A stretch of 64,000 nt of DNA from a candidate division WOR-3 bacterium (lineage in GTDB: Bacteria > Hydrothermota > Tepidihabitantia > Tepidihabitantales > Tepidihabitantaceae). Location: NCBI GenBank assembly GCA_024653355.1, contig JANLFQ010000001.1:62001-126000 (forward strand). The letters run 5' to 3'. Positions 38,664 to 53,304 of this stretch are shown here, in pieces. How positions within the stretch are numbered: the first letter of the stretch is position 1; the number at the start of each line of letters is the position of its first letter. Below the pieces are notes generated by a model. That model was given only the letters and a program-made list of their open reading frames with translations. It was not told the origin of the DNA and ran no database searches. The translations under genes were made by a program, and so were the position numbers.

Positions 38664-39680
38664 TTGACGATACACTTTTTACCAAACGAAAGGCGCATCA
38701 ACTGGCTCACCCGGCTTGCGGGTGGACACAATCTGTTTCTGCCCTTTAAGGTTAATTCCAGCGTCCACTGGGTGCGGTTCGATAAGGGAAATTTTGATAT
38801 CAACGCGCTGGCTTTAAAGGAGATTCGGGCTGCTGAGCCAATAAAACCTTTTCTCTTCAGCCCCAGGGAACGGGTTGCTCTCTTTCCCGAACCACTGGAG
38901 GAGCCGGCTGCTGAAACGCCGGCTCTTCTTTTTGGGGTGAAAGGGTGTGACCTGAGGGGCTTAGCGGTTCATAAGATAATGTTTCAGGAAGGTGAGTTTG
39001 CAGACCCATTTTATTCCAAAAGGTTGAAAGAGACAATTCTTATTGGTGCGGACTGTCCAGAACCGAAGGACTCTTGCTTCTGTAACCTCGTTGGTTTAAA
39101 ACCGTATGTGGTTGAGGGCGTGGATTTAGTTGTCAGTGTGATTGATGAGGGCTGGCTGGTTGAGGTTCTGTCGGAAAAAGGGGCAAAGTTGATTGCGGGC
39201 GAGGATTGGCGACCCGCTAGTGAAAATCAAATAGACAAAAGGAATGCACAAAGGCAGGAGGCGGAAGCGGTTCTGCAGCGCCGCAATCCCAAACCACTGA
39301 ATCCCAATTTACCCCAGGCGATTGCTGAGAAAACCAACGATGATAAGTTCTGGGCAGAGGCGGCACAGGATTGCGTTGAATGCTTCGGTTGTTTGATGAC
39401 CTGCCCGACCTGTTTCTGTTTCTTACTGTACGACCAGGCAAAAGGTGATAAAGTAGAACGGACCAGAGTCTGGGATGCCTGTTATATGGCGATGTATGCA
39501 AGGGTTGGCGGAGGTGCAAACCCCCGGGCAAAGTTCCTTAAACGGTTTATAAACCGGTTTCACTGTAAGTTTATGCACGGGAAAAATCTTCACGGGTTTT
39601 ACTTCTGTTCTGGTTGTGGCAGATGTTTTACCGCGTGTATGGGAAAGATTGATATTAGAAATATTATAGGAAGGCTATGA
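38664..39680 (+). CDS. Sulfhydrogenase-type beta subunit (HydB-like), 4Fe-4S protein
   Basis: About 338 residues. Family signatures are LLFGVKGCDLRGLAVHKIMF near residue 92, DCPEPKDSCFCNL, and two cluster motifs: CVECFGCLMTCPTCFCFLL (near 235) and CSGCGRCFTACMGKI (near the C-terminus), with WDACYMAMYARVGGG between. In archaeal sulfhydrogenases this subunit relays electrons between the gamma flavoprotein and the NiFe module. The start is uncertain: an ATG at 38616 lies upstream of a good promoter, so I place the start at the leaderless TTG 38664, which leaves an N-terminus closer to the family's. It is gene 1 of the operon and overlaps gene 2 by 4 bases. Confidence 0.8.
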   Translation: MTIHFLPNERRINWLTRLAGGHNLFLPFKVNSSVHWVRFDKGNFDINALALKEIRAAEPIKPFLFSPRERVALFPEPLEEPAAETPALLFGVKGCDLRGLAVHKIMFQEGEFADPFYSKRLKETILIGADCPEPKDSCFCNLVGLKPYVVEGVDLVVSVIDEGWLVEVLSEKGAKLIAGEDWRPASENQIDKRNAQRQEAEAVLQRRNPKPLNPNLPQAIAEKTNDDKFWAEAAQDCVECFGCLMTCPTCFCFLLYDQAKGDKVERTRVWDACYMAMYARVGGGANPRAKFLKRFINRFHCKFMHGKNLHGFYFCSGCGRCFTACMGKIDIRNIIGRL

Positions 39681-40492
39681 AAAACCCTTACCAGCCAATT
39701 CCGACAAAGATACTTAATGTAATTGAAGAGACGCCCAACATTCGGACATTTGTTCTGAAGCCGGAGCAGGAGATTCCTTTTCTTGCCGGTCAGTTTGTTG
39801 AGTTGACCATACCTGGTTTTGGCGAGGCGCCATTTACCCCTTCATCGTCCCATTTTGAGCGCGAGGTTCTTGAGATGACAATAATGCGGGTTGGTCGAGC
39901 AACTGGCGCGCTTTTTACCAAGAAGCCCGGAGATTTGCTTGGGATTCGGGGTCCTTATGGCAGACCGTACCCGCTCCAGGAGTTTGAGGGCCGGGATATT
40001 TACATTGTAGGCGGTGGTGTTGGTCTGGCACCTTTGCGGGCGCTACTTCTGGCGCTGGTTCATGATATTAATAAATATGGAAGAATCTTTCTCCGGTACG
40101 GTGCCCGCACACCGAAAGATATCGTCTACAAGAAACAGTTGAAGGAGTGGGAGAAGATAAAGAAGGTTGATATTGAGCTGTCGGTGGACAGTGCTGATGA
40201 ACCCTGGGAAAGAAAGGTGGGGGTTGTTACCTGTTTGATGGACGAAATACCGTGTGATGTCAAAAAGAGTGTTGCGGTCGTATGTGGGCCACCGATAATG
40301 ATGAAGTTCGTGACGAAAAAACTGCTTGATGCCGGTTTTCCTGGTAAGTCGATTTATCTGTCGATGGAGATGAATATGTCCTGTGGTCTGGGTCAATGTG
40401 GCCACTGTCGGCTTGGTCCATATTTCACCTGTAAGGATGGACCGGTTTTGACCTGGGAGCAGATAAAGGACATTGAGGAGCCTTTCCTGTGA
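39677..40492 (+). CDS. Sulfhydrogenase-type gamma subunit, FAD/NAD(P)-binding oxidoreductase
   Basis: 271 residues of the ferredoxin-NADP reductase family. It has an FAD domain (residues 1-100, with AGQFVELTIPGFGEAPFTPS), an NAD(P)-binding motif (IVGGGVGLAPLRALLL near residue 115), a C-terminal nucleotide pocket (VVCGPPIMMKFV) and a terminal 2Fe-2S motif MSCGLGQCGHCRLGPYFTC. In sulfhydrogenases the gamma subunit exchanges electrons with NAD(P)H. Here no soluble alpha/delta hydrogenase pair accompanies it, so it probably feeds the membrane complex encoded downstream. It overlaps the genes on both sides. Confidence 0.87.
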   Translation: MKNPYQPIPTKILNVIEETPNIRTFVLKPEQEIPFLAGQFVELTIPGFGEAPFTPSSSHFEREVLEMTIMRVGRATGALFTKKPGDLLGIRGPYGRPYPLQEFEGRDIYIVGGGVGLAPLRALLLALVHDINKYGRIFLRYGARTPKDIVYKKQLKEWEKIKKVDIELSVDSADEPWERKVGVVTCLMDEIPCDVKKSVAVVCGPPIMMKFVTKKLLDAGFPGKSIYLSMEMNMSCGLGQCGHCRLGPYFTCKDGPVLTWEQIKDIEEPFL

Positions 40493-42105
40493 TGAACGAG
40501 ATTAGGCGTACGACCTGCGTGATGTGCCGTAACGGGTGCCAGTTAGGTGTGGTGTTTGATGGGTATCAGTACCGAATGGAGTATTTAATCGATGTGGCGC
40601 CGAACAATGGTCGCACCTGTCCTCGCGGGAACAGCGCCAGTATCGTTCTCGACCATCCGAAAAGGCTCAGTTATCCATTGCTAAATGGCAAAGAGACCAC
40701 CTGGGACCACGCGTTTGATTTGATAAAAAAATGGCACCAGGATGTGAAACCGGAAGAAATCGCAGTCGTTTATAGCCGGGGCGCAGGTGCAGCCGAAGTT
40801 GGTTTGGTACGGGGTTTTGCGGCGGCGCTCAGAACAGAAAATCTTGTGTGCGGTTATCTGGAACCGGACAATGCGTTTCGGTTCCGTTTATCCGGGGTTA
40901 AGTCGGCAACTCTTGATGATGTGAGTGCAAGTCGGGCTACTCTGCTGGTGGGCGATGTGTTCAACACCTCACCGGTGGCGGCAAAACGAATAATTGAAGC
41001 CCGGTATGCAGACAAACAAAGTCGGATGGTGGTGATTGACTCCATCAAAACCCGTGAGGCGGGATTCGCTCACATATTTATTCAGCCCAAACCCGGAACC
41101 GAGTTTTTGGTCCTTGCCGCGATTGCCGGGCTAATCGATGCGAAGTTGAAGATGGACATCGATGGGATTGCCAATAGAACTGGTGTGCCCCGCCAGCAGA
41201 TGGAAGAGGTAGCGAAAGTTTTAAAACCCGGTGTGCCGGGACTTATCGCCTGTGCAGCAACTACCGGACGGATAAGCGAGCCTTACTGGCACTCAATTTG
41301 TGCTCAGATTTTAGCCTTTAAGGCGGAAAAGCCGTTTGTCGGCTTTGGTGAGGCACTGGTACCAGATGGGAAGATGGGGTTTGGAAAGTTAAAAGAGGCG
41401 GTAGGCGCCGGCAGGATTAAACTCCTCTTCTGGTTCGGGGGACTTCATCCTTATAGTTATCCGGAACTGTTTCCAGAGATAAATAAAGTGGAGTTCCGGG
41501 TGGCAACGAGCATCTTTAAGCCTGAAAACCCGCTACCGGGCCTTATACTACCGGTCCCCAGTGAATTTGAAAAGACGGGTAAAGGCGAGAGTGTCTGGGG
41601 CGAGGTGAAGTTTGAACCGCTGGCGGATCCGGTCAGCGGTACCAGGTCCTTGGCAGAAATCGTGCGCCAGTTTGGAACGGTGCAAGAGATTCCTGGGGAT
41701 TTGTTTCAAACGGTGAAACTGGAAGAGGTGACGGCGCAGTTAACGGAAACGGTTAACAGACAGTTGAACGCATCAAAGTCGGAATCGGGAAATCTTTTCT
41801 GGCTTCTCGGAAGGAAAGAGGCGATTGGAGTTGGTGGTTTCTTTGAACCCGAGGAAGAGATTTTACTACATCCGGATGATGCCCAGAAACTGGCGGTTAC
41901 GGAAGGCGATTTTGTTAAGGTAAAAAGCAAAACTGCTGAGCGGCAATTCCGGGTCAAGGTTGTATCCATAGTCGCTGAAGGAACCGCGAGCGTGGGGGTG
42001 AATGTCCATCAAAACCGAACTCTGTTTTCGGTCGAAGTTGACCCCGGCTCGGGCGAGGTTAAAATTCCGCCCACAAAGGTCGAGATATGGCGAGTGTCGG
42101 CGTAA
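40492..42105 (+). CDS. NuoG/FdhA-like molybdopterin-oxidoreductase-family protein
   Basis: 537 residues. The N-terminus has a 4Fe-4S site of the family (TTCVMCRNGCQLGV, then GRTCPRGN), followed by an MGD-binding-like body and a C-terminal beta domain (LHPDDAQKLAVTEGDFVKVK). Where formate dehydrogenases carry the metal-ligating Cys or Sec, I see none (the corresponding region reads GYLEPDNAFRFRLSG), and the chain is shorter than FdhA (about 680-750). It is therefore more likely a non-catalytic, NuoG-like electron-relay or scaffold subunit than a formate dehydrogenase. It starts at ATG 40492, overlapping the previous stop by one base. Confidence 0.75.
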   Translation: MNEIRRTTCVMCRNGCQLGVVFDGYQYRMEYLIDVAPNNGRTCPRGNSASIVLDHPKRLSYPLLNGKETTWDHAFDLIKKWHQDVKPEEIAVVYSRGAGAAEVGLVRGFAAALRTENLVCGYLEPDNAFRFRLSGVKSATLDDVSASRATLLVGDVFNTSPVAAKRIIEARYADKQSRMVVIDSIKTREAGFAHIFIQPKPGTEFLVLAAIAGLIDAKLKMDIDGIANRTGVPRQQMEEVAKVLKPGVPGLIACAATTGRISEPYWHSICAQILAFKAEKPFVGFGEALVPDGKMGFGKLKEAVGAGRIKLLFWFGGLHPYSYPELFPEINKVEFRVATSIFKPENPLPGLILPVPSEFEKTGKGESVWGEVKFEPLADPVSGTRSLAEIVRQFGTVQEIPGDLFQTVKLEEVTAQLTETVNRQLNASKSESGNLFWLLGRKEAIGVGGFFEPEEEILLHPDDAQKLAVTEGDFVKVKSKTAERQFRVKVVSIVAEGTASVGVNVHQNRTLFSVEVDPGSGEVKIPPTKVEIWRVSA

Positions 42106-42575
42106 AGGTTAAGAAGCGATTGGTTGTGCGCCTGGACTACTGCATTGGTTGCCGGGCTTGTGAAGCGGCATGTCGCAGCCGGTTTAAGGGCGAGAGTCGG
42201 ATTCGGTATGCGCCGGTGGGCGAAACGGTTCTGGTTCCCCTGCCCTGTCGGCATTGTGCCGAGCCGTTGTGTGCTGCGGCGTGTCCGTTTGAGGTGATAA
42301 AGAAAGATGAAGAGCGGGGAATTGTCTATCAGTCCAGCGTGCACTGTGTTGGATGCAAATCGTGCATCCTTGCCTGTCCATTTGGGGTTCTGGACAAGGA
42401 GTTGTTGCGTCGGATCGCGCAGAAGTGCAATCTCTGTGAAGACCGGGAAGGTGGGCCCAGATGTGCCGCTTCCTGTCCGACCGGTGCGTTACAGTTTGTA
42501 GATGAAGATGAGATGAAAGAGTTGATGGTCGGTAAGCGGGTACTTTCCCGGTTGCCTTTCTGGAGGCGGGTGTGA
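42087..42575 (+). CDS. HydN/HycB-like ferredoxin with several 4Fe-4S clusters
   Basis: 162 residues and about 17 cysteines. Motifs: CIGCRACEAACRS near residue 18, CRHCAEPLCAAACPFEVI near 54, CVGCKSCILACPFG near 87, and CNLCEDREGGPRCAASCPTG near 112. The pattern is that of four-cluster electron-transfer subunits (HycB, HydN, DmsB type). It probably wires the NuoG-like protein or gamma/beta subunits to the hydrogenase. It overlaps the previous gene by 19 bases and nuoH-like by 4. Confidence 0.88.
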   Translation: MASVGVKVKKRLVVRLDYCIGCRACEAACRSRFKGESRIRYAPVGETVLVPLPCRHCAEPLCAAACPFEVIKKDEERGIVYQSSVHCVGCKSCILACPFGVLDKELLRRIAQKCNLCEDREGGPRCAASCPTGALQFVDEDEMKELMVGKRVLSRLPFWRRV

Positions 42576-43528
42576 GTTCCTTTTTGTCCGGATGGCGTTT
42601 GGTTCTGGCGTTTGTCGTGAGCCTGATTGTTATACCCGTAGCCGGACTGGTTTTGAACTGGGTTGACCGGTTTGTTTCGGCAAGGGTGCAGTGGCGGAAG
42701 GGACCACCTTTTTATCAGCCATTTGCCGACATTCTAAAACTGCTATTAAAGCAGACGGTGGTACCGCGGGGCGCGGCGCGTACGGTATTTCTACTGGCAC
42801 CCCTGGTAGGTATTGCCGGGATGAGTCTGGTGGCGATGCTGTTAATTTTCAGCAACTCCGGGCTGGTCGTAGCGCAGAAGACATCTTTTATCGGCGACAT
42901 AATCGTCCTTCTCTACCTTCTGGCATTGGTACCGCTCAGTTTTATCGTTGGCGCTTCAGCGTCCCGTAATCCGGTCGCTGCGGTGGGAGCTTCGCGCGAG
43001 ATGACCTTATATCTTGGTTACGAACTTCCCTTTGTTCTGGCGCTTTTGGTGCCGATTGTCAAGGTTGCCCGGGCTTGGGATGTGGCAAGTGCTTTAAGAA
43101 TTGGTGGACTGGTTGCCTATCAACAGCAGTTCGGGCCATTTTTGTATTCAATTTCCGGAGTGATTGCGGCGGTGATTGTGTTGTTCACGATTCAAGCAAA
43201 ACTGGGCTTTGTGCCGTTTGACATTCCGGAAGCGGAGCAGGAGATAATGTCCGGTGTCCTTGTGGAGTATTCAGGTGCGCCCCTTGCGGCGTTTCGTATC
43301 ACCCGGGCGATGATGTTTGTTCTGTTACCGCTTCTTCTTATTACCCTATTGTGGGGTGGCATCAGGGACTGGTGGGCGGTGTTGAAGTTTCTCTTAATTG
43401 TGGTGCTGGTGGTGCTGATGAAGAACACCAATCCCCGGTTCAAGATTGACCAGGCGCTGGTGTTTTTCTGGTTCATTCTGGCGCCATTAGGTATAATTGC
43501 AGTGGTTTTAGCGTTTATTGGTTTATGA
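42572..43528 (+). CDS. Membrane subunit, NuoH/EchB/MbhM-like
   Basis: 318 residues and about eight membrane segments. NuoH-family signatures are VSARVQWRKGPPFYQP near residue 33 (the RxGP motif), REMTLYLGYELPF near 138 and the charged loop FDIPEAEQEIMSGVLVEYSG near 215. In complex I and group 4 hydrogenases this subunit anchors the hydrophilic arm and carries the quinone or ion-channel entrance. It starts with GTG inside the end of the ferredoxin gene and overlaps the small subunit gene by 4 bases. Confidence 0.92.
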   Translation: MSSFLSGWRLVLAFVVSLIVIPVAGLVLNWVDRFVSARVQWRKGPPFYQPFADILKLLLKQTVVPRGAARTVFLLAPLVGIAGMSLVAMLLIFSNSGLVVAQKTSFIGDIIVLLYLLALVPLSFIVGASASRNPVAAVGASREMTLYLGYELPFVLALLVPIVKVARAWDVASALRIGGLVAYQQQFGPFLYSISGVIAAVIVLFTIQAKLGFVPFDIPEAEQEIMSGVLVEYSGAPLAAFRITRAMMFVLLPLLLITLLWGGIRDWWAVLKFLLIVVLVVLMKNTNPRFKIDQALVFFWFILAPLGIIAVVLAFIGL

Positions 43529-43941
43529 AAGACTTAAGATTGTGGGGACTTAAAAAATCACCATGGGTTTACCACGTGGCGGCAGCGTCATGCAACAACT
43601 GTGACATCGAGATACTGGAACTGTTGACCCCACGTTACGATGTCGAGCGGTTTGGGGTTGTGCTGGTCGGCTCGCCCCGGCATGCGGATGCGCTACTTGT
43701 TACCGGAGTCATTAACCGAAAGTCTTTGCCCCGGGTTCTGGAGGTATACGAGCAGACACCCAAACCCTGCCTGGTGATTGCGATAGGAACTTGTGCTTGC
43801 AACTGTCACATATTCCGAAACTCCTACAATGCGGTTGGACCTTATGACAAACACATCCCGGTTCACGCCTATATTCCGGGCTGTCCACCCAAACCCGAGG
43901 CGATGATAATGGGTGTGGTTAAGGCGTTGAGCAAACTATGA
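43525..43941 (+). CDS. [NiFe] hydrogenase small subunit, NuoB/EchC/MbhJ-like
   Basis: 138 residues, the short form typical of group 4 hydrogenases. The proximal cluster ligands are visible as AASCNNCDIE (near residue 20), IGTCACNC (near 87) and PGCPPKPEAM (near 118). It passes electrons to the NiFe site in the large subunit. It has no twin-arginine signal, as expected for a cytoplasm-facing group 4 enzyme. Confidence 0.93.
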   Translation: MKDLRLWGLKKSPWVYHVAAASCNNCDIEILELLTPRYDVERFGVVLVGSPRHADALLVTGVINRKSLPRVLEVYEQTPKPCLVIAIGTCACNCHIFRNSYNAVGPYDKHIPVHAYIPGCPPKPEAMIMGVVKALSKL

Positions 43942-44390
43942 GCGAATCACTGAAACTGTTTCTCGAGCGATTCCCTGATACAAAAGTGTTTGAGAAAAAC
44001 CCGCGTCGTCTGTATTTAACGATTCCGCGGGAAAAACTGACCGCGGCGGCAAAGTTTCTACACGAAGAGCGGGGGATGAGGCTGTCAATCGCCACGGGAA
44101 TTGACACCCGGCACGGGTTTGAGGTGCTTTACCACTTTTCGGAAGATACCACCGGAATAATTTACACGGTGAAGGTGTTTGCGCCCAAAGACGACCCGCG
44201 GATTGAGGCTCAGGGAGGCTGGTTTCCAGCGGCTCAATGGATTGAAAGGGAGATGCATGAACTGTTAGGGATTGATTTCGTCGGGCATCCAAACCCGGCA
44301 CCGCTTCTTACTTCGGACACAGATTGGGAACAGGGGCGCTATCCATTGCGCCGGGATTATGAACGGAGGAACGAAGCCCATGAGCGGTGA
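43938..44390 (+). CDS. NuoC/EchD/MbhI-like subunit
   Basis: 150 residues. The family's alpha/beta fold and its conserved end are visible: DTRHGFEVLYHFSEDT near residue 55, and the C-terminal EREMHELLGIDFVGHPN with LRRDYER. In group 4 hydrogenases it links the large and small subunits. It starts 4 bases inside the preceding stop, and its last bases overlap the large subunit start by 11. Confidence 0.9.
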   Translation: MSESLKLFLERFPDTKVFEKNPRRLYLTIPREKLTAAAKFLHEERGMRLSIATGIDTRHGFEVLYHFSEDTTGIIYTVKVFAPKDDPRIEAQGGWFPAAQWIEREMHELLGIDFVGHPNPAPLLTSDTDWEQGRYPLRRDYERRNEAHER

Positions 44391-45570
44391 GGAAAAACAG
44401 CGCCGAATTGTGCCGATTGGTCCGTATCACCCTCTGCAGGAGGAGCCGGAGTTCTTCAAACTGATTGTTGAAGGTGAGACGGTTGTTGACCTGGAGATCC
44501 ACCTCGGCTACAACCATCGGGGTCATGAGTTTATTTCTCCGGAGTTGACCTACGAACAGGTTCCGTTTCTCGTGGAAAGAATTTGCGGTATCTGTTCAAA
44601 CTCGCATCCCCTGGCAGCGGTTCTGGCAATTGAAGATTGTGCCGGAATTAAACCGCCCCCACGGGCGAACTACATCCGTAGTATCATTCATGAACTGGAA
44701 AGAATCCACTCCCATCTACTCTGGGTTGGTCTTGCCGGGCATTTTATCGGGTACAACACCGTCTGGATGTGGGCATGGCGTTATCGAGAGCACATCCTTG
44801 AGGTTTTTGAGATGATTACCGGCAACCGTAACCATTACGCCGCCAACAAACCGGGCGGTGTGCGCTGGGACATCAAGCCGGAGCAGATTCCCCCAATTGA
44901 GGCCGCTCTTGATGTGGTAGAGAAGAAGACGATGATGCTCACCAAAGCGGTGCTTGACGACCCGGTGATTCGTGCCCGTCTTGAAGGGGTTGGGATTCTG
45001 ACAAGAGAGCAGGCGCTTCAATGGTCGGTTGTTGGTCCAACCGCCCGGGCTTCAGGGGTGGACATTGATGTGCGGCGCGATGACCCGCATGCCGCCTATG
45101 ACCAGGTACCCTGGAATGTGATTGTTTTACCGGAAGGTGATGTGTTTGCCAAGGCAAAGGTGCGGCTGCTGGAAATATTTGAATCGGTGCGTATCATTCG
45201 CGGCTGTTTGCAAAACCTGCCTGAGGGTCCGATTGACACAAGGATTGATGAAGTTCCGCCGGGAGAGGGGATTGGCAGAACCGAAGCGCCGCGCGGTGAG
45301 GTTTTCCATTATATCCGTTCGGACGGTTCCAACCGGCCCTTGCGGCACAAGATTCGGGCTCCGAGTTATATGAACATCGCTTCCAATGTCGTGGCGGTCC
45401 GGGGAGGTTCAATTGCCGATGCGGCGCTGACGCTGGCAGCGGTTGACCCCTGTTACTGTTGTACCGAACGGATGGCGGCGTTTGAGGACGGTAAAATGAA
45501 ATTTACGGGCAATGAGTTGTTGCGCCTCTCCTGGGAGAAGACGGAAAAAATAAGGGAGCGATTCAAATGA
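44380..45570 (+). CDS. [NiFe] hydrogenase large subunit, group 4 (EchE/MbhL-like)
   Basis: 396 residues. Both NiFe-ligating pairs are intact: RICGICSNSH near residue 68 (L1) and DPCYCCTER near residue 365 (L2), so this is a true hydrogenase rather than a NuoD homologue that has lost the metal. Other family motifs: LGYNHRGHEF, ELERIHSHLLW and GPTARASGVD. There is little C-terminal extension after the L2 motif (about 30 residues), so maturation may differ from that of hydrogenases with a long cleaved tail. The ATG at 44380 has GGAGG upstream. No hyp maturation genes lie in the window. Confidence 0.95.
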   Translation: MSGEEKQRRIVPIGPYHPLQEEPEFFKLIVEGETVVDLEIHLGYNHRGHEFISPELTYEQVPFLVERICGICSNSHPLAAVLAIEDCAGIKPPPRANYIRSIIHELERIHSHLLWVGLAGHFIGYNTVWMWAWRYREHILEVFEMITGNRNHYAANKPGGVRWDIKPEQIPPIEAALDVVEKKTMMLTKAVLDDPVIRARLEGVGILTREQALQWSVVGPTARASGVDIDVRRDDPHAAYDQVPWNVIVLPEGDVFAKAKVRLLEIFESVRIIRGCLQNLPEGPIDTRIDEVPPGEGIGRTEAPRGEVFHYIRSDGSNRPLRHKIRAPSYMNIASNVVAVRGGSIADAALTLAAVDPCYCCTERMAAFEDGKMKFTGNELLRLSWEKTEKIRERFK

Positions 45571-46814
45571 ACTTTGGTTCCTTGACCAGTTACTCAACCG
45601 GACCGATAGAGATTTTCCTCGCTCTGGTATTCGGGTTTATCGGGCTCTTAACGATGCTGTATTCGTTTGCCCGAATTCGAGGCAGTAAGGGACAACTTGC
45701 CGAATACTACATTTTTTTCCTTGTGCTTCTCGGTGCGGCACTGGGTGTGGTGTTTGCGAAAAACCTCCTCTTGTTGTATGTGTTCTGGGAACTGGCAACG
45801 ATCGCGCTGTGGCGCTTGGTAACCTATTTCCGGAAAGAGGAAAGTGTTCTGGCAGGTGCCTGGGCACTGTACCTGAACTTTGTTGCGGCTGCGGTGATGC
45901 TCGTCGGTCTGGTTCTGATACAACTGGAACAGGGGACACTAGACCTTGCTGTGCTGGCGGGAAAACCACTGCCTGTGTTACCGGCGATACTTATCTTGGT
46001 CGGAATTGTTGCCAAGTCCGCAACCCTGCCTTTATACATCTGGCTACCCCGTGCCTATCGTCAGGCGCCAGCCGCGGTTTGCGCCCTGCTTTCCGGGGTG
46101 GCGGAGAATCTGGGGCTGGTGCTGTTTTTGAAACTGTATGTTTTGACAATGCAGGTACCCAAGCCAATTTTCCTGGCGGTGGCGATCGTTGCGGTGGCGT
46201 CCAGTTTAATTGCCGGCGGAGTGGCATTGGGCACCAATACTATTCGGGAGACCCTTGCGTACTCAACCGTGGGTCAGATGGGTTTTATTTTACTGGGGTT
46301 TGCCGGTGTCGGTTACTATGGTTTGATGGGTGCAATGCTTTATATTATGGCACATGCGATTGCGAAGTCGGGGATATTTTTCGCCGCCGGTATTGTTGAG
46401 GATGCGAGCGGTTCGGGTGATTTATCCCGGCTCGGTGGTTTTGCCCACCACTCTCCAGTGCTTGCTGGGGCGACAGCGGTACTGATGCTTTCGGTTATGG
46501 GGTTACCACCGACATTAGGATTTTTTGCCAAGTTGGGGGTGGTTCTTGGTGCGGTCCGGAGTTCAATTTTACTCGGGATTGGGGCACTGGTTGCGGCGCT
46601 GTTCACCATTCTTTATCTCAGCCGGCTCTATTCCCGGATATTCCTTGGAACGGGTACAGATAGTTATGGTAGAGTGCCGGGCTTTGTGATATTTTTAGTT
46701 GTCGTCATGGCGATAGGAACAGTTTTAGCCGGCGTCCTGTGGTTTATTCCGGTGCGGTTTCTTGAAGCGGGTTTTAGTGGTTTGGGAATGACACTGTTAG
46801 GTGGAGGCTGGTGA
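45567..46814 (+). CDS. Antiporter-like membrane subunit, NuoN/NuoM-like (HyfB/EchA superfamily)
   Basis: 415 residues, about 12 membrane segments. Diagnostic features are the glutamate in LYVFWELATIALW near residue 75, the conserved lysine in GIVAKSATLPLYIWLPRAYRQAP near residue 155, and AYSTVGQMGFILLGFAG near 230. Such subunits form proton- or sodium-translocating half channels. It is the first of three antiporter-like subunits in the operon and the shortest (typical NuoN/M is about 450-500). It overlaps both neighbouring genes. Confidence 0.88.
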   Translation: MNFGSLTSYSTGPIEIFLALVFGFIGLLTMLYSFARIRGSKGQLAEYYIFFLVLLGAALGVVFAKNLLLLYVFWELATIALWRLVTYFRKEESVLAGAWALYLNFVAAAVMLVGLVLIQLEQGTLDLAVLAGKPLPVLPAILILVGIVAKSATLPLYIWLPRAYRQAPAAVCALLSGVAENLGLVLFLKLYVLTMQVPKPIFLAVAIVAVASSLIAGGVALGTNTIRETLAYSTVGQMGFILLGFAGVGYYGLMGAMLYIMAHAIAKSGIFFAAGIVEDASGSGDLSRLGGFAHHSPVLAGATAVLMLSVMGLPPTLGFFAKLGVVLGAVRSSILLGIGALVAALFTILYLSRLYSRIFLGTGTDSYGRVPGFVIFLVVVMAIGTVLAGVLWFIPVRFLEAGFSGLGMTLLGGGW

Positions 46815-48736
46815 TGTTTGCTCATTCGTTTGTGTTGATCATTGTTGCCCCGATAGTAGCCGGACTTCTCGGTTATCTGGTTGGTAGGTTACGCAATGAG
46901 TTCAGTTTCATCGGCGTACTTGCTTCGCTTTACTACGCCATCCGGCTGTTTTTGATTCGGGGTAGTGAGCAGGTGTTAAATCTCGGCGCGATTGCCGGGG
47001 TCCCGATTGCCTTGCGCCTTGACCCGTTGTCCGGTTTTATTCTCCTGTTTGTCAGCGTATTTACGGCACTCGTGGTATTCTACTCTTTCCGTTATATGCG
47101 AGGGCGGGAAGGAACCAGGGGTTATTACCTCTACTGCCTTTTGATTCTAGGGTTTGCCAACGGTGTTGTGTTGAGCGCCAACCTTGCCGTCCTGTTCTTC
47201 TTCTGGGGCGCTTTGCTCTTTGTCCTGTACGGGATTCTTTTGATTGGCAAAGGGGATACCTTCCTCACCGCCCGCAAGGCGCTGGTCATCGTCGGACTTT
47301 CCGACTTTGCGATGCTTCTGGGTCTGGTTCTTTTACTGACCAGGACATTCATCGCCGGGGGCTGGATTGACCTTGTCCCCAAGGTTCCCATGCCCCTCTA
47401 CGACCCGATCGCAATTGCCGGGTTTGTGCTTGTTACCGCGGGTGCCCTTGCTAAAGCCGGGGCGATGCCTTTGCACACCTGGATTCCTCAGGCGGCAGAA
47501 ACGGCACCGGCGCCGGTGATGGCGTTGATTCCAGCATCACTGGACAAACTTCTCGGAATTTATCTTTTGACCCGGCTCTGTGTCACGATGTTTGACATTT
47601 CAAGTAACATGGTGTTGAGGAACTCCTTGATGGGGATCGGTGCATTGACGATTATCGCCGCGGTGATGATGGCGCTGGTGCAGAAACGGATGATGAAACT
47701 TCTGGCATTTCACGCAGTCTCCCAGGTTGGTTATATGGTGTTAGGGATTGGCACCGGAATCCCGGTTGGTATTGCCGGCGGGCTTTTCCATATGCTCAAC
47801 AATGCTATTTACAAAACCGGGCTTTTCCTTGCCGGTGGTTCGGTGGAACACTGGGCAAGGACCGACGAACTGGAAAAACTGGGGGGCGTGGCAAAGCAGA
47901 TGCCCTTGACCTTTATTTCGTTCTTTATCTGTGCACTGGCAATCGCCGGTGTACCGCCGCTCAACGGCTTTTTCTCAAAGTGGATGGTTTATCAAGGGGT
48001 GTTAGCGATTGGCAGCGAAGGCAACCGGTTGTTTCCCATCTTCCTCGTTGCCGCAATGCTGGGCAGTGTTTTGACCCTGGCATCATTTTTGAAGATGCTC
48101 CATGCGTTGTTCTTTGGTCAACGTCCGGCAAATCTGGAGCGGGTACGCGAAGTGAGTATGACGATGTGGTTGCCGCCGTTCCTTCTGGCACTTGCCTGTG
48201 TGGTTTTCGGGGTGTTTGCCTACCAGTTGCCGCTCGCCGGGTTGATTTTACCCGGACTTGGGCTTTATGAAGTTACACTTTACGGCGCCTGGAGTCCGAT
48301 TCCGGCAACCCTGTTGTTGATTGCGGCGCTCGGCTTTGGGGCGATACTGTATCTTTTTGGGACGGCAGCCCGTCCGGTTGAGGGAAAGACCTTTGTTGGT
48401 GGCGAGAAGATTGCAGACGCCGAGGAGAGCAGGGTGCCAGGCACGGCGTTTTACTCTTCGGTGAAGCATACCCCGCTGATTGGCGAGATGCTCATCTTTG
48501 GGGAACGGGGTGCATTTGACCTTTACAACTGGTTGGTAGGTATCTTCAAGGTTGTTGGTGCTGGTCTGCGCGAAGGGATTGACCGGGTGCTTGATGCGCT
48601 GGCCGAGTTCATCGGCAAACTGATTTACTACTTCGGTCTCGGTTTGTCCCGAATTCATACCGGTAATCTGCCGCTTTATCTCTCCTGGGTGTTTTTAGGT
48701 GCCGTGATATTCTATTTACTGCTGTTTTTGAGGTAG
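46814..48736 (+). CDS. NuoL/MrpA-N-terminal-like membrane subunit
   Basis: 640 residues, about 15 membrane segments plus an amphipathic extension. Signatures: LRLDPLSGFILLFVS near residue 75, the lysine motif AKAGAMPLHTWIPQAAETAPAP near 215, FHAVSQVGYMVLGIGTG near 297 and FFSKWMVYQG near 388. The C-terminal 100 residues (an elongated amphipathic segment with EGIDRVLDALAEFIG) resemble NuoL's lateral helix region. Together with the following MbhD/E-like gene it makes up a split MrpA. The ATG at 46814 overlaps the previous stop by one base; a GTG precedes it. Confidence 0.88.
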   Translation: MFAHSFVLIIVAPIVAGLLGYLVGRLRNEFSFIGVLASLYYAIRLFLIRGSEQVLNLGAIAGVPIALRLDPLSGFILLFVSVFTALVVFYSFRYMRGREGTRGYYLYCLLILGFANGVVLSANLAVLFFFWGALLFVLYGILLIGKGDTFLTARKALVIVGLSDFAMLLGLVLLLTRTFIAGGWIDLVPKVPMPLYDPIAIAGFVLVTAGALAKAGAMPLHTWIPQAAETAPAPVMALIPASLDKLLGIYLLTRLCVTMFDISSNMVLRNSLMGIGALTIIAAVMMALVQKRMMKLLAFHAVSQVGYMVLGIGTGIPVGIAGGLFHMLNNAIYKTGLFLAGGSVEHWARTDELEKLGGVAKQMPLTFISFFICALAIAGVPPLNGFFSKWMVYQGVLAIGSEGNRLFPIFLVAAMLGSVLTLASFLKMLHALFFGQRPANLERVREVSMTMWLPPFLLALACVVFGVFAYQLPLAGLILPGLGLYEVTLYGAWSPIPATLLLIAALGFGAILYLFGTAARPVEGKTFVGGEKIADAEESRVPGTAFYSSVKHTPLIGEMLIFGERGAFDLYNWLVGIFKVVGAGLREGIDRVLDALAEFIGKLIYYFGLGLSRIHTGNLPLYLSWVFLGAVIFYLLLFLR

Positions 48737-48739: not shown

Positions 48740-49285
48740 ATGGTTGAACTTTACATTCTCTTAGGAGTTATGCTGGCAGCGGCGCTGGTTGCCAGCGAAA
48801 CAAAGAACCTGCTGGCGGCGGCGGTGGCGCTGGGTATGGTCGGGTTCAGTGTTGCGATTATGTTCATTTTAGCTCAGGCGCCGGACCTGGCGATTGTGCA
48901 AATTGTGGTTGAGACCTTAACGGTTGTGTTCTTTACGGCGGTGATTCTGCGCACCACTGAGATTGACACGACGGCAACCGGCGGTTTAAAGATGGAGACC
49001 GCAATGTTCATCGCCGCATTTCTTGCATTTGGCGGGCTGTTCCTTTCGCTCATCATCGGTGTGTTCCGGGAGTTACCGACATTTGGGCAACCTTTGATGC
49101 GGCTTGCGACCGACTACATTCAGTTCGGGCTGGAGCGGACCGGAGCGGCAAACATCGTTGCGGCAATCATCCTTGACTTCCGGGGTTATGACACCTTAGG
49201 TGAAGCAACGGTGTTGTTTACCGCGGTGGTTGGTGTATTGACGGTGATGCGGTTTGTCACCAAGAAAAAACCGGGGGGAAGTTAG
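48740..49285 (+). CDS. MbhD/MbhE-like fused subunit (MrpA C-terminal equivalent)
   Basis: 181 residues, about five membrane segments. The first half (MVELYILLGVMLAAALVAS, then APDLAIVQIVVETLTVVFF) is the DUF4040/MbhD pattern. The second half (AANIVAAIILDFRGYDTLGEATVLF) is the MbhE/MnhB-type pattern with its RGYDTLGE motif. In Mrp antiporters both domains form the C-terminus of MrpA, and in archaeal Mbh they are two separate genes, so this is a fusion intermediate between the two arrangements. It follows the NuoL-like gene by 3 bases. Confidence 0.88.
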   Translation: MVELYILLGVMLAAALVASETKNLLAAAVALGMVGFSVAIMFILAQAPDLAIVQIVVETLTVVFFTAVILRTTEIDTTATGGLKMETAMFIAAFLAFGGLFLSLIIGVFRELPTFGQPLMRLATDYIQFGLERTGAANIVAAIILDFRGYDTLGEATVLFTAVVGVLTVMRFVTKKKPGGS

Positions 49286-49729: not shown

Positions 49730-50083
49730 ATGATTCCCTATATCGCCTGTGTCCTTTTGTTTCTCATCGGTCTCTATGTGGTGGTGTCAAAGCGCAACTT
49801 GATTAAAATCGTGATTGGGTTCTGTTTGATTGAGTATGCGGTCAACCTGTTCTTTGCACTGGTCGGTTTTAAAAAGGGTGCTTTGCCGCCGATTATCACC
49901 AGTGCCGACCAGGTGCGACTCGGTGTTGCCCGCAACTTTGTTGACCCGGTGCCCCAGGCTTTGGTTTTAACGGCAATCGTCATCGGACTCTCAACCACCG
50001 CCCTGATGCTCTCGCTTGCGCTCCGCCTCTATGAGAAGCACAAGACCTTTGATGTTTCGGAATTCAGAAAGTTGAAAGGATAA
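49730..50083 (+). CDS. Antiporter subunit MrpC/MnhC (NuoK-like)
   Basis: 117 residues, three membrane segments, with the NuoK/MnhC pattern: GLYVVVSKRNLIKIVIGFCLIEYAVNLFF (conserved Glu 45 in the second helix) and DPVPQALVLTAIVIGLSTTAL. The buried glutamate and lysines take part in ion movement. It follows mrpB-like by 2 bases and has GTAGAG upstream. Confidence 0.92.
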   Translation: MIPYIACVLLFLIGLYVVVSKRNLIKIVIGFCLIEYAVNLFFALVGFKKGALPPIITSADQVRLGVARNFVDPVPQALVLTAIVIGLSTTALMLSLALRLYEKHKTFDVSEFRKLKG

Positions 50084-50089
50084 GAGCCG

Positions 50090-51595
50090 ATGGAGTCAAG
50101 ATTGCTACCACTATTTATTGCGGTGCCTTTAGCCGGTGCCTTTCTGGTGCCCCTTTTGTCGAAAATCTGGTCCCGTTTTGCTGACCTGATTGCCGGCATC
50201 GCTAGCGCGGTACTTTTGGTGGTTTCGGTTTATACCTGGCTTATCCTTAGAGCGGGCGGCGTGCCGCTTCACTACTGGGTTGGTGGCTGGAAGGTAATTG
50301 GCATTGCGATGTGGTTTGATGCTTTGACCGCACTCGTTGTTCTGGTGATCAACATCGTGGGCTTTTGTGCAATGCTCTACTCAATCCGGTATCTGGACCG
50401 TTACACCACGGGGCGCTGGAAGTTTTACACCCTGTTTTTGCTTCTTGTCGCGGGTTTAAACGGGTTGGCGATTTCCGGTGACCTGTTCAATATGTTTGTG
50501 TTTATTGAGATTTCTGCCATTGCCAGTTATGCGCTGGTGGCATTTGGTACTGAAGAGGAAGAGGTTGAGGCGGCGTTCAAGTATATGGTCCTGGGTGAAG
50601 TTGGTGGTGCGGTGCTTCTCTTTGGAATTGCGCTGCTCTACGCCCATACCTCAACCTTGAATCTCGCGACCTTGTCTCAAGCGCTGGCGACAAACGGCAA
50701 AACTCCGTTTTACTGGTTTGTCATTGCGACTTTGTTAATCGGGTTTGCAATCAAGATGGGTATGGAACCGTTCCACGCCTGGCTGGCGGATGCCCACTTC
50801 TCAGCACCGGCACCAATTTCGGCGATGCTTTCCGGTGTGTTTATCAAGGTTACCGGTGTTTACGGGATGTGCCGTTTGATGTTCAATGTGTTCGGCGTGT
50901 CCCGGGCAGACACCCCGGCGTTCTTCAACCTGTTGATTGCCTTTGGTGCGGTTTCCATGGTGCTGGGCGGACTTTTAGCCTACTCCCAGAACGACTACAA
51001 ACGGCTCCTTGCCTACTCCAGTATCAGCCAGATTGGTTATATCCTGGTGGCGCTGGGTATCGGCAACTACTGGGGTTTTGTCGGTGCGCTGTTTCATATC
51101 CTTGCCCACGCCTTAGGTAAGGGCACGCTCTTCTTAGCCAGCGGTTCGGTTGAGATGCAGGCGGGTACAAGAGAACTTGACCACCTGAAAGGACTGGAGC
51201 GGTCGATGCCTTTTACATCCTGGGCGCACATTCTGGGTTCATTCTCAATGGCAGGGGTGCCGCCCTTTGCCGGATTTTTCTCCAAGTTGTTCATCATTAT
51301 CGGTGCGATTTCCGCCCGGATGTACTGGCTGGCATTCCTTGCCGCACTCTTTTCCGCGGTCACCCTGAGTTACTTGACAAAAGTTGTCAATGTTGCCTTT
51401 TTCGCAAAAAAGAACGAGGAGCCCGTTCGGGCAAAGGAGTCGCCGGCAACGATGGTTTTGGCGATGGTTCTTCTTGTCGCTTTAATCCTGATTGTCGGGA
51501 TAGGTTTTCAGGGTGTTCTGAACCATCTAATCGGTCCGGCGGCAAAGGTGCTTATGAACGGGTTGGACTATGCCCGCTTGATGCTCGGAGGATAA
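50090..51595 (+). CDS. Antiporter subunit MrpD (NuoN/NuoM-like)
   Basis: 501 residues, about 14 membrane segments: MYSIRYLDRYTTG-type loop near residue 90, GDLFNMFVFIEISAIASYALVA near 127 (conserved Glu), AIKMGMEPFHAWLADAHFSAPAP near 220 (conserved Lys) and AYSSISQIGYILVALGIG near 308. This is the third antiporter-like channel subunit of the operon. Length and motifs match MrpD of Mrp-type antiporters. Confidence 0.92.
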   Translation: MESRLLPLFIAVPLAGAFLVPLLSKIWSRFADLIAGIASAVLLVVSVYTWLILRAGGVPLHYWVGGWKVIGIAMWFDALTALVVLVINIVGFCAMLYSIRYLDRYTTGRWKFYTLFLLLVAGLNGLAISGDLFNMFVFIEISAIASYALVAFGTEEEEVEAAFKYMVLGEVGGAVLLFGIALLYAHTSTLNLATLSQALATNGKTPFYWFVIATLLIGFAIKMGMEPFHAWLADAHFSAPAPISAMLSGVFIKVTGVYGMCRLMFNVFGVSRADTPAFFNLLIAFGAVSMVLGGLLAYSQNDYKRLLAYSSISQIGYILVALGIGNYWGFVGALFHILAHALGKGTLFLASGSVEMQAGTRELDHLKGLERSMPFTSWAHILGSFSMAGVPPFAGFFSKLFIIIGAISARMYWLAFLAALFSAVTLSYLTKVVNVAFFAKKNEEPVRAKESPATMVLAMVLLVALILIVGIGFQGVLNHLIGPAAKVLMNGLDYARLMLGG

Positions 51596-51596
51596 G

Positions 51597-52085
51597 ATGG
51601 CAAAGCGCATCGCTTACTTCATTGCCGGTGTTATCGTCTGGGTGCTTCTAAGCTGGACCCTGCACTATCAGGAGGTGCTTGCCGGTGTTGCGGTTTCGGC
51701 AATTGCCGCCGGGATGTTTGGTGGCAACCTACCCCTGAAGGCAAGCAAACTTTTAAATCCGGTGCGCTGGTTCTGGCTGCTTGTTTTTATTCCGGTATTT
51801 ATCTGGCAGTGTCTCAAGGCGAACATCGATGTTGCGATGCGCGTTCTTTCACCCGGGCTGAACTTAAAACCGGGGATTGTGAAGATTAAAACCAACTTGA
51901 AGAGCGATATCGCCCGGGTGTTTTTAGCAAACTCAATCACAATGACCCCGGGTACTCTCACCGTGGAAATAAAGGATGACAATCTGTACATTCACTGGAT
52001 TGAGGTGCGAAGCGAAGACCCGGAGGAGTGCGCCCGGATGATTAAAGGGCCATTTGAGTTTTTCCTCGCGCGGATATTTGATTAA
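51597..52085 (+). CDS. Antiporter subunit MrpE/MnhE-like
   Basis: 162 residues: two or three N-terminal membrane segments (KRIAYFIAGVIVWVLLSWTL and WFWLLVFIPVFIWQCLKANI) and a cytoplasmic domain with the MnhE pattern LARVFLANSITMTPGTLTVEI, here ARVFLANSITMTPGTLTVEI. It follows mrpD by 1 base with GGAGGATAAG as ribosome binding site. Confidence 0.92.
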   Translation: MAKRIAYFIAGVIVWVLLSWTLHYQEVLAGVAVSAIAAGMFGGNLPLKASKLLNPVRWFWLLVFIPVFIWQCLKANIDVAMRVLSPGLNLKPGIVKIKTNLKSDIARVFLANSITMTPGTLTVEIKDDNLYIHWIEVRSEDPEECARMIKGPFEFFLARIFD

Positions 52086-52098
52086 GGAGGCTTGAGGA

Positions 52099-52350
52099 AT
52101 GATACCGATAATCATTTTAATTCCGGCAGCGTTCTTCTGTCTGTATCGGGCGCTACAGGGTCCATCAATTGCTGACCGGGCGATTGCGGTAGATATGATG
52201 GGCGTGGTGTTCTCGGCAATTACCGCTCTGGTTGCCCTTCAGTACCAACTGAGTTATCTTCTGGACTTATCAATCGCACTGGCGGTTATCGCCTTCATCG
52301 GCGCGCTGGCGCTGGCAAAGTATCTTGAAGGAAGGAGTCTGGATGATTAG
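52099..52350 (+). CDS. Antiporter subunit MrpF/MnhF-like
   Basis: 83 residues, three membrane segments, with the family motif FFCLYRALQGPSIADRAIAVDMMG near residue 12 (GP-xxDRxxAxD). Its Asp is among the conserved ion-path residues of MrpF. AGGAGG lies upstream of the ATG. Its end overlaps mrpG by 8 bases. Confidence 0.92.
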   Translation: MIPIIILIPAAFFCLYRALQGPSIADRAIAVDMMGVVFSAITALVALQYQLSYLLDLSIALAVIAFIGALALAKYLEGRSLDD

Positions 52351-52696
52351 CGCTCTGGCATTGCTCTCGCTCTGGCTCGGCGTGATTTTCGTTTTGCTCG
52401 GTGCGCTGGGGCTGGCACGGTTTCCGGACATCTACAACCGTATGCAGGCAGCGACCAAGTGTGTTACCCTTGGGGTCTGCGGTATTATGCTTGGTGTTTT
52501 TCTGAAAACTGGTTTTTCGGCGCTCGGCATCAAGGCGCTCATCTGCGCCCTTTTCATCCTGATTACGGTCCCCGTTTCCAGTCATGCCCTGGCACGCGGT
52601 TCACTAATCGCCGGGGTGAAACTGTGGAAGGGCACAATCAAGGACAAATTTACCGAAGACCGAGGTGGCAAATCCATAATTGAGGAAGAGAAATGA
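52343..52696 (+). CDS. Antiporter subunit MrpG/MnhG-like
   Basis: 117 residues, three membrane segments and the MnhG motif LGLARFPDIYNRMQAATKC near residue 23, followed by LKTGFSALGIKALIC and TVPVSSHALARGS. The ATG at 52343 has GGAAGGAG seven bases upstream; a TTG at 52325 in the same frame is rejected. The C-terminus is a short charged tail. It overlaps the final gene by 4 bases. Confidence 0.92.
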   Translation: MISALALLSLWLGVIFVLLGALGLARFPDIYNRMQAATKCVTLGVCGIMLGVFLKTGFSALGIKALICALFILITVPVSSHALARGSLIAGVKLWKGTIKDKFTEDRGGKSIIEEEK

Positions 52697-53304
52697 GGAT
52701 TCCATTACCAAAGTTGCGTGAACTGGTTGAGGCGGTTCGGGCGGTGGTTAAGGGTCCGTTTACCACCAAATTTCCGAAAGCGGTCGATTCGGTCCACCCG
52801 AACTTCCGGGGGATTTTGAAGTTTCGGGAAGAGAACTGCCTTTGCTGTGGTGCCTGTGTTCAGGTGTGTCCGACAAACGCAAGGGAGATTGTGATTGACC
52901 GCGCCAAAGGTGTTAAACGCAACATCCATTATGCAGAGCGGTGCATCTACTGTTCGCAATGCGTCCTTCACTGTCCAAACGATGCGATTTACCATACGCC
53001 GGAGTTTGACCTTTCCCGCACCGAACGGGGTGGCTGGGAAACATCACTTGAAAAACAACTGGTCTACTGCGAACTTTGCGGTGAGCCCTTTGCTACCCGG
53101 GAACACCTCTTGTGGATTGCCCATCGGGTCGGAGATTTGGTAAACTCCAACCCGACCCTTTTCCTGACTCTTTATCAATCACTCGGTGTTGCGGCGCCAC
53201 AGGAAGCGCCTGCCGGTGCACTGCCTTATCGTTCGGGCACACTGCGCATTCTCTGCCCGGACTGTCGGCGCAAGACCTATATGACCGAAGAGTGGGGTTA
53301 TTAG
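52693..53304 (+). CDS. NuoI/MbhN-like 2x[4Fe-4S] ferredoxin subunit
   Basis: 203 residues. Two cluster motifs of the NuoI/EchF type are present: CLCCGACVQVCPTNA near residue 53 and CIYCSQCVLHCPNDAI near residue 87. In group 4 hydrogenases this subunit accepts electrons from ferredoxin or its equivalent and delivers them to the small subunit. The extra C-terminal region contains further cysteine pairs (CELCGEPF and CPDC), suggesting an added metal site, probably zinc. It is the last gene of the operon. Confidence 0.92.
   Translation: MRIPLPKLRELVEAVRAVVKGPFTTKFPKAVDSVHPNFRGILKFREENCLCCGACVQVCPTNAREIVIDRAKGVKRNIHYAERCIYCSQCVLHCPNDAIYHTPEFDLSRTERGGWETSLEKQLVYCELCGEPFATREHLLWIAHRVGDLVNSNPTLFLTLYQSLGVAAPQEAPAGALPYRSGTLRILCPDCRRKTYMTEEWGY

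What the first reader, a model, noticed from the sequence alone, without database searches (positions are those of the whole stretch)
38664..53304. 18-gene composite complex: sulfhydrogenase electron-input module on a group 4 hydrogenase with full Mrp
Gene order: HydB-like, HydG-like flavoprotein, NuoG/FdhA-like, multi-cluster ferredoxin, NuoH, NuoB, NuoC, NiFe large subunit, NuoN-like, NuoL/MrpA-N, MbhDE, MrpB-G, NuoI. In archaea, Mbh-type hydrogenases contain parts of an Mrp set and sulfhydrogenases contain beta-gamma plus their own alpha-delta. Here the beta-gamma pair comes without alpha-delta and stands ahead of a membrane hydrogenase with intact Ni ligands, plus an extra antiporter-like subunit. 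The inference is NAD(P)H- and ferredoxin-linked H2 metabolism coupled to H+ or Na+ movement by one large complex. I do not know of a described enzyme with exactly this composition.
Basis: partly seen in the sequence, partly recalled or inferred. Interest (0 to 1): 0.85.

Follow-up and report, generated by a model that had tools for sequence, protein, structure and literature searches.

The report
NAD(P)H-fed, Mrp-type group 4 hydrogenase
An 18-gene bacterial operon encodes what is probably one membrane machine that makes hydrogen from NAD(P)H while moving ions; it is an old, conserved design shared by many uncultured phyla, its gene set was noticed once before, and it has never been tested in the laboratory.

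Summary
Eighteen co-directional genes (38616/38664-53304, gaps of at most 13 nt) encode HydB, HydG, a molybdopterin-fold protein (Mop), a 16-Cys ferredoxin, NuoH, NuoB, NuoC, a [NiFe] large subunit with all four Ni ligands, NuoN, NuoL, MbhDE, MrpB-G and NuoI. The genome is WOR-3 (Caldifarciminota).

This is not a one-off assembly. The order is syntenic through the class, and HydB-HydG lie upstream in 83 of 86 testable loci from WOR-3, Omnitrophota, Zixibacteria, Saganbacteria, Fermentibacteria, Spirochaetes and others. The large subunits form one clade.

New detail: Mop has an FdhF/NuoG fold, but the catalytic Sec/Cys and His are lost in every operon-internal member, and the class essentially lacks MoaC and MoeA. 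It is probably a cofactor-free, NuoG-like wire. Most other phyla lack Mop, and HydG abuts the ferredoxin gene.

Best reading: an FHL/Mbh-type complex in which a sulfhydrogenase-type NAD(P)H module replaces formate input. It is this genome's only detected hydrogenase, and a HycI protease is present.

The composition was noted for Saganbacteria in 2019 without a function; HydDB calls group 4g "undetermined". Verdict: new variant of a known kind, catalysis untested.

The parts
38616..39680 (+). HydB/AsrA-like iron-sulfur subunit (sulfhydrogenase beta); start may be TTG 38664
   Evidence: ShyB/HydB models 143.8/142.7 bits, below equivalog cut-offs; P. furiosus SHI beta 9nez_B E=8.8e-39; 14 Cys invariant in 105/105 and one in 103/104
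39677..40492 (+). HydG/AsrB/PyrK-like FAD, NAD(P)H-binding, [2Fe-2S] subunit (sulfhydrogenase gamma)
   Evidence: NAD_binding_1, FAD_binding_6, DHODB_Fe-S; SHI gamma 9nez_C E=4.1e-49; four [2Fe-2S] Cys 109/109
40489..42105 (+). Mop: molybdopterin-oxidoreductase-fold subunit, predicted cofactor-free, keeps an N-terminal [4Fe-4S] site
   Evidence: Pfam Molybdopterin and Molydop_binding; catalytic Sec/Cys-His lost; no MoaC/MoeA detected in genome; AlphaFold model matches E. coli FHL FdhF 7z0t_A (TMq 0.68) and NuoG
42087..42575 (+). HycB/HydN/CooF-like ferredoxin, 16 Cys (four [4Fe-4S])
   Evidence: Fer4_11 and HydN/AegA/DmsB models; 16 Cys about 90-100% conserved in 115 rows
42572..43528 (+). NuoH/HycD-like membrane subunit
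   Evidence: NADHdh E=2.7e-58
43525..43941 (+). NuoB/HycG-like small subunit, proximal [4Fe-4S]
   Evidence: Oxidored_q6 E=3.7e-29
43938..44390 (+). NuoC-like 30 kDa subunit
   Evidence: Complex1_30kDa E=1.7e-25
44380..45570 (+). [NiFe] group 4 large subunit with CxxC...CxxC ligands (RICGIC, DPCYCC) and a C-terminal extension
   Evidence: PF00346 and PF00374; MbhL 6cfw E=1.5e-78, HycE 7z0s E=7.7e-75; ligands 134/134
45567..46814 (+). NuoN/NuoM-like antiporter subunit, 415 aa, optional in relatives
   Evidence: Proton_antipo_M E=1.1e-54; not found as a separate hit in most other phyla
46811..48736 (+). NuoL / MrpA-N antiporter subunit
   Evidence: Proton_antipo_M and _N
48740..49285 (+). MbhD-MbhE fusion (MrpA C-terminal part)
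   Evidence: PF13244 and PF20501
49254..49727 (+). MrpB
   Evidence: MnhB E=3.6e-22
49730..50083 (+). MrpC
   Evidence: Oxidored_q2 E=8.7e-29; MnhC/MrpC models
50090..51595 (+). MrpD
   Evidence: Proton_antipo_M E=6.7e-71; MrpD-type models
51597..52085 (+). MrpE
   Evidence: MNHE E=1.5e-41
52099..52350 (+). MrpF
   Evidence: MrpF_PhaF E=2.3e-13
52325..52696 (+). MrpG
   Evidence: PhaG_MnhG E=7e-25
52693..53304 (+). NuoI/HycF-like, two [4Fe-4S] plus a conserved C-terminal CxxC...CxxC site
   Evidence: HycF-type model E=6.2e-24, NuoI; 8 Cys in all 98-99 rows and 4 further Cys in 95/95

Best explanation
The operon encodes one membrane complex: an NAD(P)H:H+ oxidoreductase (H2-evolving, probably reversible) that couples electron flow to Na+ or H+ movement. 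SHOWN from sequence: gene content, order, metal ligands, co-inheritance, and loss of the formate site. INFERRED route: NAD(P)H binds HydG (FAD, [2Fe-2S]); electrons pass through HydB clusters to a HycB-like 16-Cys ferredoxin subunit (in WOR-3 via or beside the dead FdhF-like Mop, which keeps only its [4Fe-4S] cluster and serves as a NuoG-like adaptor), then through NuoI and NuoB clusters to the Ni-Fe site, where H+ is reduced to H2. Coupling through NuoH drives the antiporter-like arm (NuoN, NuoL-MbhDE, MrpB-G). Reduced ferredoxin probably enters the same chain near NuoI, so the two donors could be drained together, or the ion gradient could push electrons uphill from NAD(P)H. In this genome the complex is the only hydrogenase detected and sits alongside Rnf and several pyruvate-type oxidoreductases, which fits a fermenter that vents reductant as H2.
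For: Operon structure. Ni ligands invariant; one HycI protease and a HypD/HypE-type locus in the genome, as expected for a matured NiFe site. No FeFe hydrogenase, no other NiFe hydrogenase, no sulfite reductase, no other molybdopterin protein. HydB and HydG best match the solved P. furiosus SHI beta and gamma. HydB-HydG upstream in 83 of 86 testable loci; distance correlation LSU-HydG r=0.82 and LSU-HydB r=0.73 against a best shuffle of 0.07; one branch of 118 rows, SH-aLRT 99. Mop-less form with HydG abutting the ferredoxin gene in most other phyla. Mop: catalytic residues lost, MoaC/MoeA essentially absent from 61 genomes, FdhF/NuoG fold. Rnf and five to six POR-family hits.
Against: No biochemistry exists. 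NAD versus NADP, ferredoxin use, direction and coupling ion cannot be deduced from these data. NADPH to H2 releases little energy except at low H2 (textbook potentials), so the pump may run backwards or ferredoxin may be the main donor. Distance correlations among linked genes also reflect shared inheritance of an operon, not contact alone. Two relatives show no HydB-HydG next to the large subunit and one carries them 7 kb away; one of these gaps may be an assembly or frameshift effect.
Confidence: 0.62

Rival explanations
1. A ferredoxin-driven Mbh-type hydrogenase; HydB-HydG is a separate soluble NAD(P)H-linked enzyme that is merely co-transcribed.
For: The closest solved large subunit is MbhL; HydDB describes group 4g as ferredoxin-coupled, putative (PMC5037454); HydBG is a mobile module also related to sulfhydrogenase and Asr subunits.
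Against: No free partner enzyme is encoded: no group 3 large subunit and no sulfite reductase. Co-location in 83/86 loci in many phyla. The HycB-like ferredoxin, typical of FHL and not of Mbh, sits directly next to HydG in the Mop-less form.
Confidence: 0.17
2. The complex runs mainly the other way: H2 uptake, or ferredoxin:NAD(P)+ oxidoreduction with ion pumping, with the Ni-Fe site reversible or secondary.
For: The modules are reversible in known homologues (general knowledge); MBX-type relatives were proposed as ferredoxin:NADP+ oxidoreductases (as quoted in PMC6349859).
Against: Ni ligands and a maturation protease are conserved or present, so the Ni-Fe site is under selection; Rnf already covers ferredoxin:NAD+ here; it is the only hydrogenase detected in a genome with several ferredoxin-reducing oxidoreductases.
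Confidence: 0.14
3. A formate hydrogenlyase: Mop is an active formate dehydrogenase.
For: The order Mop, HycB-like ferredoxin, group 4 hydrogenase, Mrp parallels Thermococcus fdh-mfh-mnh; the fold is FdhF-like; one Clostridia locus has a true FdhA upstream (L163).
Against: Catalytic Sec/Cys and His replaced in all operon-internal members; MoaC/MoeA not detected in this genome and in nearly all of 60 relatives.
Confidence: 0.02
4. An Asr-type sulfite- or sulfur-reducing unit joined to Mbh.
For: AsrA/AsrB models match (99.9 and 205 bits).
Against: Scores lie below the Asr cut-offs and HydB/HydG-type models score higher; no NIR_SIR protein in the genome; catalytic Ni site intact.
Confidence: 0.03

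Closest known systems
Saganbacteria RX5A group 4 [NiFe] hydrogenase cluster (2019, PMC6349859)
   Same: Hydrogenase, Mrp subunits, unclassifiable molybdopterin oxidoreductase, cooF, asrA, asrB; nearest relatives reported in Zixibacteria and Omnitrophica.
   Different: Only gene content was reported. Loss of the active site, absence of Moco synthesis, the two architectures, wide distribution and the NAD(P)H route were not stated in the text read here (supplementary notes not readable).
HydDB group 4g, Mrp-linked, of Omnitrophota (PMC8542988, PMC5037454)
   Same: Mrp-linked membrane [NiFe] hydrogenase in Omnitrophota; role given as undetermined, putatively ferredoxin-coupled.
   Different: HydB-HydG and Mop are not mentioned in the passages read. 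Formal assignment of the present clade to 4g was not run.
Thermococcus formate hydrogenlyase Fdh-Mfh/Mhy-Mnh, group 4b (PMC2432063, PMC4463584, PMC10025317)
   Same: Mo-fold protein, HycB-like ferredoxin, group 4 hydrogenase and Mrp-type antiporter together.
   Different: Formate site dead or gene missing here; HydB-HydG input added.
P. furiosus Mbh, group 4d (6cfw)
   Same: Mbh/Mrp membrane architecture, intact Ni site; large subunit about 41% identical.
   Different: Separate clade; three antiporter-like subunits here; HydBG, Mop and a HycB-like subunit added.
P. furiosus sulfhydrogenase I, group 3b (9nez)
   Same: HydB and HydG subunits.
   Different: No alpha/delta subunits; the module sits on a membrane hydrogenase.
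Respiratory complex I
   Same: Layout of NADH module, Mo-fold NuoG wire, B/C/D/I, H and antiporters.
   Different: No NuoE/F; HydBG instead; Ni site intact; H+ rather than quinone as presumed acceptor.

Membership tests
Group 4 [NiFe] hydrogenase | Large subunit with RxCGxCxxxH and DPCxxC ligands, plus NuoB/H/I-like partners | tested here: met
Group 4 [NiFe] hydrogenase | NiFe maturation (Hyp proteins and C-terminal endopeptidase) in the genome | tested here: met
   HycI; HypD; AIRS-domain (HypE-type) gene next to HypD
Group 4 [NiFe] hydrogenase | Hydrogenase activity | not testable with these tools
   Needs protein
Group 4d Mbh | Large subunit within the MbhL clade | tested here: not met
   Separate branch of 118 rows, SH-aLRT 99, about 41% identity to MbhL; only one 4d reference was available and long branches are present
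HydDB group 4g | Placement with 4g reference sequences | not testable with these tools
   No HydDB reference set held; the literature assigns Mrp-linked Omnitrophota enzymes to 4g
Formate hydrogenlyase (4a/4b) | Catalytic FdhA/FdhF with Sec/Cys and His, and Moco supply | tested here: not met
Group 3b sulfhydrogenase | HydA alpha and HydD delta subunits present | tested here: not met
   Single NiFe large subunit in the genome, group 4 type
Group 3b sulfhydrogenase | HydB/HydG curated-model cut-offs | tested here: not met
   Best 143.8 bits (cut-off 690) and 214.9 bits (cut-off 395): homologous but outside the curated families
Anaerobic sulfite reductase AsrABC | AsrC siroheme subunit and Asr cut-offs | tested here: not met
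Complex I | NuoD without Ni ligands; NuoE/F module | tested here: not met
   Ni ligands present; the only PF01512 protein in the genome is RnfC
Mrp antiporter | MrpA-G set | tested here: met
   MrpA split as NuoL + MbhDE, and MrpB-G; transport activity untested
Saganbacteria RX5A-type cluster | Group 4 NiFe + Mrp + unclassified Mo-fold + cooF-like + asrA/asrB-like genes | tested here: met
   a Saganbacteria locus L114 (another isolate) has the same order

The most novel reading that the evidence does not exclude
A widespread, undescribed class of respiratory complex: NAD(P)H- and ferredoxin-fed proton reduction coupled to a multi-antiporter ion pump, so that H+ replaces quinone as the electron sink in a complex I-like machine, with a formate dehydrogenase subunit that has become a cofactor-free, NuoG-like wire independently of complex I.
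Probability: 0.35. Interest if true: 0.85.

Novelty: new variant of a known kind. Interest (0 to 1): 0.62.

Why it matters
HydDB lists group 4g as of undetermined role. This family, found in many uncultured anaerobic phyla, gives one clade of Mrp-linked group 4 enzymes a specific, testable donor (NAD(P)H via HydB-HydG) and would explain how fermenters with a single hydrogenase can vent both NAD(P)H and ferredoxin electrons. Loss of the formate site in an FdhF-like subunit parallels the presumed history of NuoG in complex I, so it bears on how modular respiratory complexes evolve.

Tried and rejected
Plasmid megablast of the operon: no match. 35-39% 'large subunit' hits with in-frame stops in relatives looked at first like selenocysteine or readthrough; the two read in full (L090, L091) have no Ni ligands, are NuoD-type and end normally. 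Formate hydrogenlyase, Asr and group 3b readings were tested and rejected. The NuoF-like PF01512 hit resolved as RnfC. Promoter and terminator scans were not informative (20 promoter-like sites against 12.4 expected, 28 terminator-like against 24.7). Helix counts by hydropathy were rough only. The Acetothermia paper and the Thermococci formate review gave context, not this complex. Placement of the clade relative to 4b and 4g references could not be done.
Full report
WHAT IS THERE. Eighteen + strand genes between 38616 (or TTG 38664) and 53304 overlap or lie at most 13 nt apart. The neighbours are unrelated: thiamine-phosphate kinase (divergent, 37343-38542), NrdR and an anaerobic ribonucleotide reductase on one side, a MazG-like gene and a DUF6754 gene on the other.

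THE ORGANISM. The window lies in a 1.88-Mb, 98% complete genome. NCBI's phylum name is Caldifarciminota.

IS THE HYDROGENASE REAL. The large subunit carries RICGICSNSH and DPCYCCTER. The four ligand cysteines, and an extra cysteine between the last two, are present in 134 of 134 aligned rows. A C-terminal extension follows, as in HycE, and the genome holds one HycI-type protease and a HypD gene beside an AIRS-domain, HypE-type gene. No other NiFe large subunit and no FeFe hydrogenase was found. So this is a Ni-competent hydrogenase and apparently the only one, and HydB-HydG have no group 3b alpha-delta partner to serve.

IS IT A REAL UNIT. The same order recurs through the class: in most of 40 loci from nine families all 18 genes are in register. 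A large-subunit homologue is found in 57 of 61 genomes and in all 42 of good quality, although in one of these (G042) it is only a distant 32% hit. A scan of named genomes with a divergent member as query returned the large subunit in Omnitrophota, Zixibacteria, Margulis- and Saganbacteria, Hydrogenedentota, Fermentibacteria/Aegiribacteria, Spirochaetes, Elusimicrobia, Actinomycetota, Clostridia, Nitrospirota, a Desulfococcus MAG and others, with at least 587 relatives before the cap. Nearly all of the 80 loci kept carry HydB-HydG-(Mop)-ferredoxin-NuoHBC-large subunit-antiporters-NuoI as far as their contigs reach. Of 86 loci with enough upstream sequence, 83 have HydB and HydG upstream on the same strand. 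In a tree with MbhL, HycE, NuoD and other group 4 relatives these large subunits form one branch of 118 rows, SH-aLRT 99 (a quick tree with some long branches; one stray row, L062_LSU2, falls inside on a branch of length 10 and is not meaningful). Distances between large subunits correlate with those of HydG (0.82), HydB (0.73) and Mop (0.77), with shuffles reaching at most 0.22.

TWO FORMS, AND A DEAD FORMATE DEHYDROGENASE. Mop is present in the WOR-3 class, a Saganbacterium (L114), a Zixibacterium (L094) and UBP14 (L101); in most other phyla HydG abuts or nearly abuts the ferredoxin gene and Mop is missing. Mop has an FdhF/NuoG fold: its model (mean pLDDT 74; residues 1-49 poor; only six sequences in the alignment) finds E. 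coli FdhF in the formate hydrogenlyase structure (7z0t_A, TMq 0.68), other formate dehydrogenases, and NuoG of complex I. Yet the catalytic Sec/Cys and the following His are replaced in every operon-internal member, while three of the four N-terminal [4Fe-4S] cysteines are invariant in 51 of 51 rows and the fourth is kept in 45 of 51. The own genome has no other molybdopterin protein, no MoaC and no MoeA; among 61 genomes MoaC appeared once, as a partial match at a contig edge, and MoeA once below the cut-off. The economical reading is a cofactor-free electron wire or scaffold, as NuoG is. A Clostridia locus (L163) has a true FdhA with CARLCH upstream of HydB, so a live formate module may be paired with the same complex.

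OTHER MODULE CHANGES. Some WOR-3 relatives lack the Mrp genes (L048) or replace them with a large NuoL plus NuoN (L042, L059); L072 keeps Mop, ferredoxin, NuoB, NuoC, large subunit and NuoI without NuoH or antiporters nearby, with HydB-HydG 7 kb on. The NuoN-like subunit is optional. Three single-contig relatives lack parts of the cluster in place (L053, L056, L064); rearrangement, frameshift and assembly error were not separated.

MECHANISM. HydG and HydB are closest among solved structures to the gamma and beta subunits of P. furiosus sulfhydrogenase I. Cluster ligands are conserved along a complete path: HydG (FAD, [2Fe-2S]), HydB, (Mop), a four-cluster ferredoxin, NuoI, NuoB, Ni-Fe. By homology with formate hydrogenlyase (general knowledge of FdhF-HycB-HycF-HycG-HycE), the HycB-like ferredoxin is where the soluble input enzyme docks; here the input is an NAD(P)H module in place of, or on top of, an FdhF relic. 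I infer NAD(P)H:H+ oxidoreduction coupled to ion movement. Ferredoxin entry near NuoI is likely but unproven, and direction would be set by H2 pressure and the ion gradient. Rnf and several pyruvate-type oxidoreductases place it in a fermenter.

PRIOR ART. A 2019 paper (PMC6349859) reported the same gene content for Saganbacteria RX5A, called it enigmatic, and noted relatives in Zixibacteria and Omnitrophica. Mrp-linked group 4g enzymes are listed for Antarctic Omnitrophota (PMC8542988), and HydDB gives 4g an undetermined, putatively ferredoxin-coupled role (PMC5037454). Thermococcus operons combine Fdh, a group 4 hydrogenase and Mnh (PMC2432063, PMC4463584), and a soluble NAD(P)-linked formate dehydrogenase is known there too (PMC10025317). 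I found no paper in the held library that describes the HydBG-group 4-Mrp family as such or tests it; most subscription journals are not in that library.

VERDICT. Observation confirmed; interpretation supported in its main line and sharpened. It is a new variant of a known kind, widely distributed and biochemically untested.

Noticed in passing
window 45451-45462 (large subunit C358-C361): All large subunits of the clade read DPCYCC, with an extra Cys between the two Ni ligands where MbhL and HycE have Ser (DPCLSC, DPCYSC); paralogues read DPCICC. Function unknown.
   Followed up: partly
L163 750-3524: A Clostridia MAG carries a 925-aa FdhA with intact CARLCH upstream of the Mop-less HydBG-hydrogenase-Mrp operon: a possible formate plus NAD(P)H version.
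   Followed up: partly
L072 4407-9328 and 16320-18141 (coordinates in the operon's orientation): A WOR-3 relative has Mop-ferredoxin-NuoB-NuoC-large subunit-NuoI without NuoH or antiporters nearby: possibly a soluble derivative of the complex.
   Followed up: partly
L048: A compact 10-gene form with NuoL but no Mrp genes.
   Followed up: partly
L085, L087, L088: Some WOR-3 relatives have a second group 4 hydrogenase (about 44% identical large subunit) with a different order: NuoN-NuoL-MrpD-MrpC-NuoB-NuoC-large subunit-NuoH-NuoI and no HydBG.
   Followed up: partly
L159: The record is labelled Latescibacterota but its contig length (38696) equals that of G027, a genome of the window's order, and it carries the WOR-3-type operon; probably a naming conflict between NCBI and GTDB.
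   Followed up: no
L053, L056, L064: Single-contig relatives in which part of the operon (antiporters or HydB-HydG-Mop) is not found in place; rearrangement, frameshift or assembly effect not resolved.
   Followed up: no
L182 6710-11849 (own genome): An Rnf cluster (C, D, E, A, B by Pfam; G by position only).
   Followed up: partly
window 52693-53304: NuoI carries a C-terminal CxxC...CxxC site invariant in 95/95 relatives, resembling HycF of formate hydrogenlyase.
   Followed up: partly
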